Positions 24,455 to 32,532 of a stretch of DNA of 64,000 nt are shown one piece after another. The first letter of the stretch is position 1, and every line of letters starts with the position of its first letter. Both the position numbers and the translations under genes were made by a program. This DNA is from Comamonadaceae bacterium (GTDB lineage Bacteria; Pseudomonadota; Gammaproteobacteria; Burkholderiales; Burkholderiaceae_C): NCBI GenBank assembly GCA_027485235.1, contig JAIXRJ010000010.1:1-64000 (forward strand), written 5' to 3'. The notes beneath the pieces were generated by a model. It was not told the DNA's origin, searched no databases, and worked only from the letters and a program-made list of their open reading frames with translations.

Positions 24455-25453
24455 ATGAAATTTTCTGCCCCTGCATTTGTGCGCACCACCCTGGGTGCCA
24501 TCGCTCTGACACTGGGCGCCAGCGCCATGGCGCAGTCCGTGGTGCGCTTCCAGGACTACCCTGGCACCGGCAATCTGTTGGTGCGTGTGGCCCAAGAACA
24601 AGGCTTCTGCCAGCAAGTGGGTATCCGCTGCGAACTGCGCACGATTCCCGCCGCGCCATTGGGCATGCAGACCATGCTCTCGGGTGACATCGACGTGTTT
24701 TTTGGCCCGACCGAAGTGGCGGCTGCAGCCGTGGCCCGCAAGGCCCCCATTTCCATCATTGCCGCAGGCTTCGTCGATCCGGTGTTCTTCATGGCCGCAG
24801 GTGTCAAAACCGAATTGGCGACCGAAAAAGAAGGCTACCCCGGCGTGGTCAAGTCCTTCAAGGGCAAGAAAATCGGCGTGACCCAACGTGGCTCGGGCGC
24901 TGAATTCCAAGTCATCGACATGCTGGCCGATGTGGGCTTGACGGCGAACGATGTGACCTTTGTGGCTGTGGGTGCGCCCGACACGGCATTTCCTGCGCTC
25001 ACACGCGGCCAAGTCGACCTGATCATGACCTTCCCGCCGACCGACGGCATGTGTGAAGTGTTGAAAGCCTGCCGCCTGGTGGTCGACCCCCGCAAAGGTC
25101 AGGGCCCCAAGAGCATGATGGCGACCCGGGGTGGCGCTGGCACCATGGCGGTGAAGGCCGACTGGGCTGCTGCCAATCCGCAAACGGTGGCCTCTATCCG
25201 CAGGATGCTGGACTTGTCGGATGCTTTCATCGCCAACCCGGCCAACTTCGGCAAGACACTGGAGATCCTGCGCAAGACCTTTGCCCTGCAATTGCCCAAC
25301 GCCGACCAGATCGCTGAGATCAGCCTGCGCAACTCCATCGGCAACTTCAAGGCCCGTGGCAGCGTGCCTGCCATGCAGGCGGTGGCAGATGCCATGACCG
25401 AAAACAAGTTGTTGCCCGGTCGAGTGGACATGGCCCCCGCAGTCTTGCCCTGA
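24455..25453 (+). CDS. ABC importer substrate-binding protein, TauA/SsuA-like
   Basis: A 332-residue periplasmic binding protein. The start at 24455 has GGAGA 4 nt upstream and gives a signal peptide cleaved after ASAMA (residues ~24-28). The NMT1/SsuA-type fold is visible (VRFQDYPGTGNLLVRVAQEQGFCQQVG, SGDIDVFFGPTEVAAAAVARKAP, FKGKKIGVTQRGSGAEFQVIDML). Relatives bind taurine, alkanesulfonates, nitrate or pyrimidine precursors. It is the first gene of the operon that runs through the shell genes, so it probably captures the compartment substrate. The exact ligand cannot be read. Confidence 0.85.
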   Translation: MKFSAPAFVRTTLGAIALTLGASAMAQSVVRFQDYPGTGNLLVRVAQEQGFCQQVGIRCELRTIPAAPLGMQTMLSGDIDVFFGPTEVAAAAVARKAPISIIAAGFVDPVFFMAAGVKTELATEKEGYPGVVKSFKGKKIGVTQRGSGAEFQVIDMLADVGLTANDVTFVAVGAPDTAFPALTRGQVDLIMTFPPTDGMCEVLKACRLVVDPRKGQGPKSMMATRGGAGTMAVKADWAAANPQTVASIRRMLDLSDAFIANPANFGKTLEILRKTFALQLPNADQIAEISLRNSIGNFKARGSVPAMQAVADAMTENKLLPGRVDMAPAVLP

Positions 25454-25487
25454 GCGCCGACGACAGCGAAGGCCCCAGGGAACATTC

Positions 25488-26252
25488 ATGATCGACGCAC
25501 AGCGCATCGACCTGAGCTTTGACGGTACCCATTTGGTGTTGCAGGGTGTGAACCTGCACGTGAAGGCGGGAGAGTTTGTTGCGCTCGCAGGCCCGAGCGG
25601 CTGTGGCAAAACCACCTTGCTCAACCTGTGCGCGGGCCTGGTCGATTTGCCAGTTGGTCAGCGGCTGCGGGTGGCGGGCGAACAGCCGGTGCTGGGCAGC
25701 CACAACGTGGCTTACATGCTGGCGCGCGACAGCTTGTTCCCCTGGCTCAACGCGCTGGACAACGCCGCCTTTGGCCTGAAAGTTCGAGGCGTGCCCATCT
25801 CAGAGGCCCGGGAAAGGGCCGCAGTGATGCTCAAGCAAGTCGGGCTCGGTGGGTCTGAGCATCGACTGCCCAAAGCCCTCTCTCATGGCATGCGCCAGCG
25901 CGTGGCGCTGGCACGCACTTTTGCCATGCCTTCGCCCCTGTTGCTGATGGACGAGCCCTTTGGGTCATTGGATGCGCAAACCAAGCTGCAATTGCAAGAC
26001 CTGCTGCTGCAACTGTGCCAAGACGGCAACCGAACGGTGCTGTTTGTGACGCACGACTTGTCTGAAGCCGTGGCCTTGGCCGACCGGGTGATGGTCATGT
26101 CTTCGCGACCCGGCCGCATCGTGGCCGATGTGCAGGTGCCGCTGGCGCGTCCGCGCTCTATCCGAGAGCTGCAGACCAGTGATGACTTCCACCGCACCTA
26201 CACCCAGGTTTGGAAACATCTCGAAGAAGGGTGGGTGCACCATGAGGGGTGA
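25488..26252 (+). CDS. ABC importer ATP-binding protein, TauB/SsuB-like
   Basis: A 254-residue ATPase of the taurine/nitrate/sulfonate importer class. Walker A is GPSGCGKT (residues 35-42). The signature region is LSHGMRQRVALARTFAM (His replaces the usual Gly in LSGG). Walker B is LLLMDEPFGSLDAQTK, followed by the switch His in LFVTHDLSEAVALADRVMVMSSRPGRI. It follows the binding protein by 34 bp and overlaps the permease start by 11 bp, which indicates translational coupling. Confidence 0.88.
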   Translation: MIDAQRIDLSFDGTHLVLQGVNLHVKAGEFVALAGPSGCGKTTLLNLCAGLVDLPVGQRLRVAGEQPVLGSHNVAYMLARDSLFPWLNALDNAAFGLKVRGVPISEARERAAVMLKQVGLGGSEHRLPKALSHGMRQRVALARTFAMPSPLLLMDEPFGSLDAQTKLQLQDLLLQLCQDGNRTVLFVTHDLSEAVALADRVMVMSSRPGRIVADVQVPLARPRSIRELQTSDDFHRTYTQVWKHLEEGWVHHEG

Positions 26253-26997
26253 AACATGGCGAACTCTGTCGCTGCATGCCCTGTTCCTGAGCGTGGTGTT
26301 GGGCCTGTGGGAGTGGGGCGCACGGGTCGGGTGGATGGATCCGAGTTTCATGGGCAGCCCGCTGGGCATCATCAGCTTCACACTGGACAACCTCAGCAAC
26401 GCCCGCTTGTGGGGCGATCTGGGCTACACCCTGTTGGCCGTGTTCGCGTCTTTTGTCATGGGTTCGATCGCCGCCATGATCACCGGCCTGGCATTTGTCA
26501 CTTGGCCCAAGTTCGAGGCCTTTTGCGACCCCTACGTCTCGGCCTTCAATGTGCTGCCGCGCATCGCCTTGGTGCCGCTGTTCATTCTGTGGTTTGGCTT
26601 GGGGCTGGGCTCCAAGATCGCGCTGGGCGTCTCGCTCACCTTCTTCATCGTGCTGTCCAGCACGGTGGCCGGTATTCGGGGTGTCAGCCAAGACCATGTG
26701 ACGCTCACGCGCACCCTGGGTGCCAGCAGTCGGCAGATGTTCTTCTCAGTCACATTGCCGGGCGCTGTTCCGGTGCTTTTCTCAGGATTGCGCCTGGGCG
26801 TGATCTATGCCCTGTTGGGCGTGGTGGGCGCAGAAGTCATTGCTTCCGAGCGGGGTCTCGGGCAACAACTCGCTTATCTGGGATCCACATTCAACGTCAA
26901 CGGCGTGTGGTCGCTGCTGTTTGATCTGGCCCTCATCGGGGTGCTGATCATGAAGCTGATGAACTGGATCGAACGCCGTTTGCTGCACTGGCAATGA
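26242..26997 (+). CDS. ABC importer permease, TauC/SsuC-like
   Basis: A 251-residue inner-membrane permease with about six helices. The start at 26242 overlaps the ATPase gene by 11 bp. The EAA loop contacting the ATPase is visible (TVAGIRGVSQDHVTLTRTLGASSRQMFFSVTLPGAVPVLFSGLRLGVIYALLGVVGAE). It completes a SsuABC/TauABC-type importer. TauD follows 34 bp later, the same gene partnership as in E. coli tauABCD. Confidence 0.88.
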   Translation: MRGETWRTLSLHALFLSVVLGLWEWGARVGWMDPSFMGSPLGIISFTLDNLSNARLWGDLGYTLLAVFASFVMGSIAAMITGLAFVTWPKFEAFCDPYVSAFNVLPRIALVPLFILWFGLGLGSKIALGVSLTFFIVLSSTVAGIRGVSQDHVTLTRTLGASSRQMFFSVTLPGAVPVLFSGLRLGVIYALLGVVGAEVIASERGLGQQLAYLGSTFNVNGVWSLLFDLALIGVLIMKLMNWIERRLLHWQ

Positions 26998-31540: not shown

Positions 31541-31813
31541 ATGTCACAAGCCATCGGAATGATCGAAACCAAAGGTTATGTTGCTGCTTTCGCTGCCGCT
31601 GACGCCATGGTCAAAGCTGCCAACGTCAACATCGTTGGCAAAAAAGAAGTGGGTGGCGGTCTCGTCGCCATCATCGTGTCGGGCGACGTGGGCGCCGTCA
31701 AGGCCGCCACCGAAGCCGGTGCTGAAGCCGCAGGCGCCATCGGTGAAGTGGTGTCTTGCCACGTCATCCCACGTCCACACGCTGACGTGTCCAAAGCCTT
31801 CGACGGCAAGTGA
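31541..31813 (+). CDS. Hexameric BMC shell protein (BMC-H)
   Basis: A 90-residue canonical PduA/CcmK-type facet protein: AIGMIETKGYVAAFAAADAMVKAANV, then VGKKEVGGGLVAIIVSGDVGAVKAATEAG and EVVSCHVIPRPH. The pore loop reads VGGG where PduA has a GSG-type loop, which predicts a small uncharged pore. The strong ribosome-binding site fits a high-copy facet protein. Confidence 0.96.
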   Translation: MSQAIGMIETKGYVAAFAAADAMVKAANVNIVGKKEVGGGLVAIIVSGDVGAVKAATEAGAEAAGAIGEVVSCHVIPRPHADVSKAFDGK

Positions 31814-31842
31814 TCGCAGGCAGTTGCAGATAAGGAGGCCGC

Positions 31843-32532
31843 ATGGCCACAAGCAAAAAAGCCACCGCGGCCGCCCAAGCGCCCGCTAAAGCGCCTGCCA
31901 AGTCGGCCGCTGAGCTTCGGGTTTACCTGACGCTCACCGACCTGCAGCCCCAGTTCTCCTCGTGGATGAGTTCGCCTTTGGGCGCACGCGGCTACGTGGC
32001 GATGCAAGGCACCCACGCGCTGTTGGTCGAGATCGCCCCCGGGCTGTCCATCCAGCGTGTGATTGACTTGGCCCTGAAAGCCGAGCCCTCGCTGGAGCCG
32101 GGCATCTTGGCGGTGGAGCGGCAGTTTGGCGTACTGGAGTTGCACAGCAAGGACAGCGCGGCGCTCCAGCGCGCAGGCCAGGCCATCCTGGACTGGATGG
32201 GGGCCAAGGCCCAAGACCAGCTGCGCCCGCACCTGCTGTACAGCGACATTCTGGAAAACGTGACCGATCAGCACGCCGTGTTGATGAACCGGACGCGCCA
32301 AGCCAGCATGGTGTTGCCGGGCCAGAACATGCTGCTGATGGAAGTGGCCCCGGCCCTGTTTGGTGCCCACATGGCCAACGAAGCCGAAAAAGTCGCCCCC
32401 GACCTGACCCTGATCGAGTGCAGCATGATCGGGGCCAGTGGCCGCATGTACCTGACCGGCAGCATGGCGTCGCTTGAAAAAGCCAAAGCCCATGTGGAGC
32501 AATTGCTGGCCGAGATTCCCGGCAGAGCCTGA
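31843..32532 (+). CDS. Tandem-domain BMC shell protein (BMC-T), copy 2
   Basis: A 229-residue shell protein closely related to the BMC-T at 29629 (shared LQPQ, VE[IV]APG, VERQFG.LE, MLLPG/MVLPG, ANEAEK and GR[LM]YL[ST]G segments). It has an additional Lys/Ala-rich N-terminal tail (residues 1-~25, ATSKKATAAAQAPAKAPAKS). The domain order again looks circularly permuted. A strong GGAGG precedes the ATG. It is the last gene of the co-directional BMC operon. Confidence 0.83.
   Translation: MATSKKATAAAQAPAKAPAKSAAELRVYLTLTDLQPQFSSWMSSPLGARGYVAMQGTHALLVEIAPGLSIQRVIDLALKAEPSLEPGILAVERQFGVLELHSKDSAALQRAGQAILDWMGAKAQDQLRPHLLYSDILENVTDQHAVLMNRTRQASMVLPGQNMLLMEVAPALFGAHMANEAEKVAPDLTLIECSMIGASGRMYLTGSMASLEKAKAHVEQLLAEIPGRA

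What the first reader, a model, noticed from the sequence alone, without database searches (positions are those of the whole stretch)
24455..32532. A dioxygenase-based bacterial microcompartment operon
One co-directional operon joins a TauABC/SsuABC-like importer, a TauD/TfdA-family Fe(II)/2-oxoglutarate dioxygenase, a CoA-acylating aldehyde dehydrogenase and a complete set of shell proteins (two BMC-T, one BMC-P, one BMC-H). Described catabolic BMCs mostly start from a lyase, glycyl-radical enzyme, aldolase or amine-handling enzyme. I know of no class whose signature enzyme is an O2-consuming dioxygenase. TauD-type chemistry gives an aldehyde plus sulfite (or another leaving group), and a volatile or toxic aldehyde is the usual reason for a shell. 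The gene set is seen; the pathway is inferred.
Basis: partly seen in the sequence, partly recalled or inferred. Interest (0 to 1): 0.93.

Follow-up and report, generated by a model that had tools for sequence, protein, structure and literature searches.

The report
Protein-shelled compartment built around a dioxygenase

Summary
Of 34 GTDB loci with this TauD, 32 have AldDH and shell genes beside it; two end at contig edges. Similar loci occur in other genera of the family, in the alphaproteobacterium Chachezhania and in three genomes of another class. The TauD has a C-terminal helical extension that 6 of 6 shell-less TauDs examined lack. AldDH forms a clade beside that of RMM-like amino-alcohol compartments; loci hold TauD (42) or the RMM-like aminotransferase (12), none both. 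So this looks like an RMM-related chassis with another aldehyde-maker. A shell-less operon pairs a related importer with TauD and a non-acylating AldDH, supporting TauD -> aldehyde -> AldDH. The substrate is unproven: sulfonate rests on two conserved residues, importer kinship and scattered TauE neighbours. The 2021 catalogue's supplement could not be checked.

The parts
23559..24269 (-). Crp/Fnr-family regulator, divergent from the operon
   Evidence: PF00027 and Crp-type HTH; a Crp-family match on the opposite strand upstream in 32 of 34 loci, 32-91% identical, and beside the shell-less twin operon. Role as regulator inferred.
24455..25453 (+). ABC importer, periplasmic substrate-binding protein (SsuA/NMT1 family)
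   Evidence: PF09084; TIGR01728 below cut-off; two versions alternate among the loci: 80-97% identical (69% in L032) or 43-52%
25488..26252 (+). ABC importer, ATPase (closest model TauB, below cut-off)
26242..26997 (+). ABC importer, permease (closest models SaoP and TauC, below cut-offs)
27032..28096 (+). TauD-family Fe(II)/2-oxoglutarate dioxygenase, predicted signature enzyme
   Evidence: PF02668 1.5e-57; iron ligands H100, D102, H268, 2OG residues T127, R279, and H71/R283 aligned with H70/R270 of E. coli TauD (roles of residues recalled); best fold match E. coli TauD 6edh, TM 0.94 by target length
27932..28093 (+). Codons 301-354: C-terminal extension of the dioxygenase (disordered linker, then four short helices), predicted lumen-targeting module
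   Evidence: AlphaFold2 pLDDT <50 at 300-307, block means 77-85 from 311 on; present in shell-linked TauDs (shortened form in L032), absent in 6 of 6 shell-less ones
28126..29619 (+). Aldehyde dehydrogenase of the CoA-acylating EutE/AdhE-N/SauS group, with a C-terminal helix-like end resembling encapsulation peptides
   Evidence: PDB 5j78 acetylating acetaldehyde dehydrogenase E 2.2e-88, Cys256 aligned with a Cys of that enzyme that I recall as the active-site one; C-terminal ELQAMVLRIVQEELEHL after a linker
29629..30243 (+). BMC-T, CcmP-like (double-stacking family) shell protein
   Evidence: PF00936; nearest solved sequence RMM shell protein MSM0275 (5l39, E 7.6e-72)
30240..31193 (+).
   Evidence: SnoaL_2 at 34-133; a homologue lies between BMC-T and BMC-P in 28 of 28 loci examined, SnoaL domain absent or inserted elsewhere in part of them
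31190..31459 (+). BMC-P pentamer-family shell protein
   Evidence: PF03319 9e-13
31541..31813 (+). BMC-H hexamer-family shell protein
   Evidence: PF00936 1.5e-26
31843..32532 (+). Second BMC-T, CcmP-like
   Evidence: NF053796 2.3e-50

Best explanation
The operon encodes the parts of a bacterial microcompartment in which a TauD-type Fe(II)/2-oxoglutarate dioxygenase is predicted to hydroxylate a likely sulfonate at the carbon bearing the acid group, so that it would fall apart into an aldehyde and sulfite, and an acylating-type aldehyde dehydrogenase would convert the aldehyde to an acyl-CoA before it leaks out. Shown: gene set, order, conservation, kept TauD catalytic residues, the shell-linked C-terminal extension of TauD, and kinship of AldDH and shell with RMM-like loci. 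Inferred: shell assembly, lumen location of TauD, the reaction, the substrate. The ABC importer (Burkholderiaceae) or a TRAP importer (Chachezhania and L130-L132) would bring in the substrate. No PduL-type phosphotransacylase was found in the genome, so CoA and NAD would have to pass the shell, perhaps through the double BMC-T proteins. The accessory protein is likely a lumen scaffold; its SnoaL domain has no assigned role.
For: Neighbourhood: 32 of 34 loci found by TauD have AldDH plus shell genes, 2 end at contig edges; in the genus 28 of 90 genomes match the TauD and 28 of 28 have the extension and AldDH next to it. In 399 Burkholderiaceae genomes the 6 with a BMC-T1 match of at least 65% identity are the 6 with an extended TauD; the other 6 TauD genomes have no match to this shell protein and no extension. 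Other classes: three genomes of one unnamed genus (L130-L132) and the alphaproteobacterium Chachezhania (L034) have TauD, AldDH and the same shell order. The extension is helical after a disordered linker and alike in four lineages. AldDH tree: the 12 TauD-type tips form a clade, support 0.985. Enzyme exchange: aminotransferase in 12 of 12 RMM-like and 0 of 42 TauD-type loci; TauD in 0 of the 12; the own genome has no close aminotransferase (best 31% identity). Shell-less twins L138/L139: Crp, importer, TauD, then an AldDH, betaine-aldehyde-dehydrogenase-like in L138. Sulfonate: H70 and R270 of E. coli TauD kept, Y73F, N95T, F206W changed (roles recalled); TauE/SafE next after BMC-T2 in 4 of 31 loci, two lineages.
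Against: No biochemistry, microscopy or proteomics exists here. H71 and R283 are also kept in PlaO1, recalled as acting on no sulfonate. TauE/SafE is common (5 in this genome) and is not the next gene in 27 of 31 loci. TauD, importer and AldDH all fall below curated cut-offs. Close TauD relatives (65-74% identity) without the extension lie among the extended ones in the tree; they are known only as proteins, context unknown, and a draw of 299 genomes found none of them. The hydrophobic moment of the TauD extension does not stand out from shuffles in four of five lineages tested. The TauD of the shell-less twins is 38% identical and lacks the H70 equivalent, so its substrate may differ. In the BMC-T1 tree the split from RMM-like loci and L097 is weak (0.494).
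Confidence: 0.55

Rival explanations
1. Same compartment and same aldehyde logic, but the substrate is not a sulfonate: the dioxygenase would cleave an alkyl sulfate, an ether, or an N-alkyl compound, and the leaving group would be sulfate, an alcohol or an amine.
For: TauD-fold relatives include AtsK (alkyl sulfate) and RdpA (phenoxypropionate), both among the hits; the H70/R270 pair is kept in PlaO1 too; L034 and L130 use TRAP importers without assigned substrate.
Against: Closest solved relative by sequence and fold is taurine dioxygenase; importer closest to SsuA, TauB, SaoP/TauC models; TauE/SafE neighbours in two lineages.
Confidence: 0.32
2. The compartment is an RMM-type amino-alcohol metabolosome fed from elsewhere in the genome, and TauD is only a co-transcribed cytosolic sulfur-scavenging enzyme.
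For: AldDH is sister to that of RMM-like loci and the nearest solved shell sequence is from the RMM compartment.
Against: Aminotransferase and kinase are absent from 42 of 42 TauD-type loci (stretches of limited length); in the own genome the best aminotransferase match is 31% identical and no kinase match was found, the latter without a positive control. TauD is kept next to the shell across classes and bears an extension tied to it.
Confidence: 0.06
3. The shell genes are a decaying or non-assembling remnant beside an ordinary desulfonation operon.
For: Only gene sequence is available; 62 of 90 genomes of the genus had no match to this TauD.
Against: BMC-T1, BMC-P and BMC-H are 96-100% identical to the window's in the loci that hold them, L032 and L034 excepted (71% for BMC-T1 in L032; 68%, 45% and 77% in L034), more alike than importer or accessory gene.
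Confidence: 0.03

Closest known systems
RMM (Rhodococcus and Mycobacterium microcompartment; amino-alcohol type)
   Same: RMM-clade double BMC-T; AldDH sister to that of RMM-like proteobacterial loci; same order BMC-T, accessory, BMC-P, BMC-H, BMC-T as in those loci; no complete metabolosome core
   Different: No aminotransferase or phosphotransferase in the locus; TauD and its own importer instead
ARO microcompartment of Actinobacteria (PMC10470539)
   Same: O2-consuming dioxygenase as signature enzyme plus an aldehyde dehydrogenase with shell genes
   Different: Ring-cleaving dioxygenase, non-CoA AldDH without detectable encapsulation peptide, distant shell, aromatic substrate
Isethionate sulfo-lyase (glycyl radical) microcompartment loci of sulfite-reducing bacteria (PMC6453916)
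   Same: C-S cleavage beside shell genes and a TRAP importer (passages); products acetaldehyde and sulfite are recalled
   Different: Glycyl radical enzyme, oxygen-sensitive; here the cleavage would consume O2
E. coli TauABCD taurine desulfonation
   Same: Importer plus Fe(II)/2OG dioxygenase, same fold and metal site
   Different: No shell or AldDH (recalled); changed residues around the taurine amine; below the curated cut-off

Membership tests
Bacterial microcompartment (metabolosome) | BMC-H and BMC-P shell genes in one locus | tested here: met
Bacterial microcompartment (metabolosome) | CoA-acylating AldDH with encapsulation peptide | tested here: met
   Sequence level only: acylating family with aligned Cys256, C-terminal helix-like end after linker; activity and targeting untested
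Bacterial microcompartment (metabolosome) | Phosphotransacylase and alcohol dehydrogenase to recycle CoA and NAD (complete core) | tested here: not met
   No PF06130 in the genome, controls ring; no alcohol dehydrogenase among the ten genes. Fits the 'incomplete core' group; pta-type enzymes were not searched
RMM | RMM-clade double BMC-T shell proteins and AldDH | tested here: met
   MSM0275 E 7.6e-72; sister to RMM-like in the AldDH tree, weaker in the BMC-T1 tree. No tree with the catalogue's own sequences was made
RMM | Aminotransferase, phosphotransferase and short-chain dehydrogenase in the locus | tested here: not met
   Aminotransferase and phosphotransferase in 0 of 42 TauD-type loci; one weak dehydrogenase match, 29% identical, far off in L025
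ARO | PF02900-type ring-cleaving dioxygenase | tested here: not met
   Dioxygenase matches PF02668 only
Taurine dioxygenase (TauD equivalog) | NF007104 curated cut-off 313 bits | tested here: not met
   250.2 bits
Fe(II)/2OG dioxygenase superfamily | HxD...H iron triad and 2OG arginine | tested here: met
   H100, D102, H268, R279
A locus type of the 2021 catalogue (MIC, MUF, BUF) | Listed shell colour combination and Pfam set | not testable with these tools
   Supplementary Data 2 not available; the word 'dioxygenase' occurs 0 times in the main text, ARO being described there by 'oxygenases'

The most novel reading that the evidence does not exclude
An aerobic organosulfonate organelle: a distinct microcompartment type, sharing its chassis with the RMM amino-alcohol compartment but with another aldehyde-making enzyme, in which an encapsulated Fe(II)/2-oxoglutarate dioxygenase breaks a C-S bond with O2 inside the shell. 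It would be the oxygen-using mirror of the anaerobic isethionate-lyase compartment, present in a freshwater genus.
Probability: 0.45. Interest if true: 0.88.

Novelty: new variant of a known kind. Interest (0 to 1): 0.74.

Why it matters
Metabolosome classes are named by the enzyme that makes the aldehyde. Here that enzyme would be an Fe(II)/2-oxoglutarate dioxygenase that must draw O2, 2-oxoglutarate and iron into the shell and release succinate and CO2, which asks new things of shell pores. The catalogue of 2021 states that a large number of AldDH loci lack an obvious aldehyde-maker; this assigns a candidate to one lineage, gives a clear case of enzyme exchange on a shared shell and AldDH chassis, and is directly testable in Limnohabitans strains that carry the locus (T6-20, II-D5, 15K).

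Tried and rejected
Hydrophobic-moment test of the three predicted targeting helices against shuffles: not discriminating for TauD (1007, 1466, 92, 1012 and 847 of 2000 shuffles reach it for the window, L034, L092, L130 and L025), moderate for AldDH (115, 287, 14, 101, 58), mixed for the accessory N-terminus (450, 1007, 241, 48, 470); dropped as evidence. AlphaFold2 of the accessory protein: mean pLDDT 45.7, not used. Solved-structure search for the accessory protein gave weak SnoaL-like hits, best E 0.032, and for the binding protein distant ones, best E 2.9e-15. Promoter and terminator scan near shuffle level: 2 against a mean of 1.0, 11 against 9.7. Enoyl-CoA hydratase (32678-33520) and 3-hydroxybutyryl-CoA dehydrogenase (upstream, ending 23558) were considered as pathway members and rejected: matches of about 90% identity lie near 4 and 5 of the 34 loci, and the gap from the operon to the hydratase is 145 bases. 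TRAP importers gave no substrate. Context of extension-less close TauD relatives was not found. Papers: 8 searches; in their listings I saw no paper that joins TauD and a microcompartment operon; sections 6 and 8 and passages of PMC8217296, passages of PMC4207490, PMC10470539, PMC6453916 and PMC12866615 were read; preprints and most subscription papers are not in that library.
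Full report
The locus. Window 24455-32532 holds ten co-directional genes with gaps of -11 to +81 bases: binding protein, ATPase, permease, TauD, AldDH, BMC-T, accessory protein, BMC-P, BMC-H, BMC-T. A Crp/Fnr-type regulator (23559-24269) is divergent. Identities come from Pfam and NCBIfam. The accessory gene (30240-31193) was not in the finding. Curated cut-offs are not reached for the importer, TauD, AldDH or shell models of NCBIfam (of the ATPase's 188 families the best 25 were shown), so the functional names say kinship only; Pfam cut-offs are reached for all genes but the second BMC-T. 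The genome (3.19 Mb, 50 contigs, 95.85% complete) shows no other BMC locus by PF00936 and no PduL. The genus is Limnohabitans by inference: genome G650, listed as same genus, has a contig of 1,293,545 bases, the length of the Limnohabitans sp. T6-20 contig.

Conservation. A scan of one genome per species with the TauD gave 34 loci, titled Limnohabitans, Comamonadaceae, Burkholderiales or Burkholderiaceae in most cases, others Hydrogenophaga, Rhodoferax, Chachezhania sediminis and one 'Akkermansia' bin. In 32 of 34 AldDH and at least one shell gene follow TauD; L028 and L036 end within TauD. All four shell genes are seen in 27 (in L013 and L035 one of them in part); the other 7 reach a contig end first. 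The importer matches upstream in 32 of 34; L034 has no match to it beside TauD and L035 starts inside TauD. In the genus, 28 of 90 genomes match the TauD at E <= 1e-70 (23 of 56 good-quality ones), and in 28 of 28 the extension is present and AldDH follows (those stretches were too short to show the shell). So within the genus it is a patchy trait.

Wider survey. With BMC-T1 as query, 3 of 398 genomes of the phylum sample matched; in the family sample 27 of 399, 6 at 65% identity or more and 21 at 42-46%. The six are G000, G650, G338, G640, G777 and G780. With TauD as query at E <= 1e-60, 12 of 399 matched: the same six, and six others that are not among the BMC-T1 matches. Of the 21 weaker matches I fetched six; none has a TauD match. 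In family f41, 12 of 17 genomes match; the ten that I fetched have AldDH and shell but no TauD. In a 385-genome sample of the class of G008 (another class than the window's, unnamed), 10 matched at E <= 1e-55: three of one genus (L130-L132) are TauD-type, three (L133-L135) are RMM-like, four are f41, of which three had been fetched. Chachezhania (L034) is an alphaproteobacterium.

Two signature enzymes on one chassis. Queries for the class III aminotransferase, APH phosphotransferase (both L098) and short-chain dehydrogenase (L096), families confirmed, were run against 67 loci at E <= 1e-15. Aminotransferase is in 12 of 12 RMM-like loci, phosphotransferase and dehydrogenase in 11 of 12 (L135 ends early); aminotransferase and phosphotransferase are in 0 of 42 TauD-type loci. 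TauD has no match in the 12. L097 has neither TauD nor an adjacent aminotransferase (a 30% match lies far off). In the own genome the aminotransferase finds at best 31% identity and the phosphotransferase nothing, the latter without a positive control. Trees of 25 (AldDH) and 24 (BMC-T1) chosen sequences (AldDH repeated): the 12 TauD-type AldDHs form a clade (0.985) set against RMM-like ones plus L097; in BMC-T1 the TauD-type clade has 0.907 and its place next to L097 and the RMM-like ones is weak (0.494). The closest solved relative of BMC-T1 is MSM0275 of the RMM shell. The RMM description that I compared with is in PMC4207490 (passages). 'RMM-like' is my label from gene content, not a catalogue assignment. 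This points to one origin of the type and exchange of the aldehyde-making enzyme; the direction is inferred.

The dioxygenase. Alignment with E. coli TauD keeps the iron ligands (H100, D102, H268), 2OG residues (T127, R279) and the equivalents of H70 and R270; Y73 is F, N95 is T, N97 is R and F206 is W in the 10 shell-linked enzymes aligned (which residue binds what is recalled). That fits an anion other than taurine, likely a sulfonate without an amine, but PlaO1 keeps the same H and R. The AlphaFold2 model (mean pLDDT 89.3, pTM 0.79) has a TauD core, a disordered stretch 300-307 and a helical C-terminus (311-315, 318-323, 326-341, 344-353); best fold match is E. coli TauD. The extension is similar in the Limnohabitans group, L092-L095, L034 and L130-L132; L032, also shell-linked, has only a shortened form. 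None of six shell-less TauDs has it. Of the 120 best protein homologues, 35 carry the strict motif (others carry looser or shortened forms), and the tree, whose print was cut, shows extension-less relatives among them, of unknown context.

Why an aldehyde. In L138 and L139 the divergent Crp gene, the importer (permease 67-68%, binding protein 42-44% identical) and a TauD of 285 aa are followed by an AldDH and no shell; that of L138 was tested and is betaine-aldehyde-dehydrogenase-like. So an importer-TauD-AldDH unit exists with and without a compartment; with the shell the AldDH is of the acylating kind. This supports TauD -> aldehyde -> AldDH, with the caution that the L138 TauD is 38% identical.

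Why sulfite. A TauE/SafE-like gene is the next co-directional gene after BMC-T2 in 4 of 31 TauD-type loci with a downstream reading frame (L005, L010, L011, L025); Pfam was run on L005 and L025, and on L017 where such a gene lies further off; L010 and L011 were judged by their likeness to L005. L005, L010 and L011 look like near relatives, so this is two events. The genome has 5 such genes. Weak support, noticed after the fact.

Accessory protein. Between BMC-T1 and BMC-P, 28 of 28 loci examined (15 TauD-type, 12 RMM-like, L097) encode a protein with an N-terminal helix-like start, a middle segment and a C-terminal TPLARDKA-like segment, compared by eye. A SnoaL domain sits between start and middle in the window (residues 34-133) and, by likeness, in L009, L025 and L026; between middle and end in L130 (101-204) and, by likeness, L131 and L132; it was not found in L022 and L034 and appears to be missing in L004, L027, L092-L095 and the RMM-like ones. 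Two insertion points in one scaffold suggest that the domain was gained twice; its role is open.

Known and new. ARO shows that a dioxygenase-led compartment is not new as such. The isethionate-lyase loci show C-S cleavage beside shell genes under anoxic conditions. The catalogue's main text has no 'dioxygenase' and says that a large number of AldDH loci lack an obvious aldehyde-maker; its supplement could not be read, so the locus may already be listed there without a function. Searches for papers joining TauD or Limnohabitans with microcompartments listed none that describe it.

Noticed in passing
L097:4092-11524: A third variant of the same AldDH and shell chassis: followed by an FAD oxidoreductase with GCV_T domains (sarcosine/dimethylglycine-dehydrogenase-like) and a choline-kinase-like APH gene, with neither TauD nor an adjacent aminotransferase.
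   Followed up: partly
window 30954-31022 (codons 239-261 of the accessory gene): Cys/His-rich cluster CCSSCKAGKACECKGDTCGLHDH, kept in the accessory proteins of L004, L009, L022 and L025-L027 with changes, not seen in L034, L092-L095 or L130-L132; could bind metal.
   Followed up: no
window 24455-26997; L009, L016, L018-L021, L023, L028, L031, L036: In these 10 loci another ABC importer (binding protein 43-52% identical) stands at the same place upstream of otherwise closely similar TauD genes; in the other loci that hold it, it is 69-97% identical.
   Followed up: no
P0121, P0122: About 450-residue accessory homologues with additional SnoaL-family annotation, perhaps with two such domains.
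   Followed up: no
L024: Record titled Akkermansia muciniphila MAG carries this locus at 92% identity in TauD; probably a mislabelled or mixed bin.
   Followed up: no
L034:14884-18837 and L130:13034-16953: These loci are followed by an AraC-type regulator (DJ-1/PfpI domain, tested in L034 only) and a TRAP importer (binding proteins tested in both).
   Followed up: partly
window 20096-22303: TonB-dependent receptor whose best model is PqqU, about half of the curated cut-off.
   Followed up: no
L137:8471-12826: A shell-less TauD relative lies beside what look like sulfatase genes, read by eye only.
   Followed up: no
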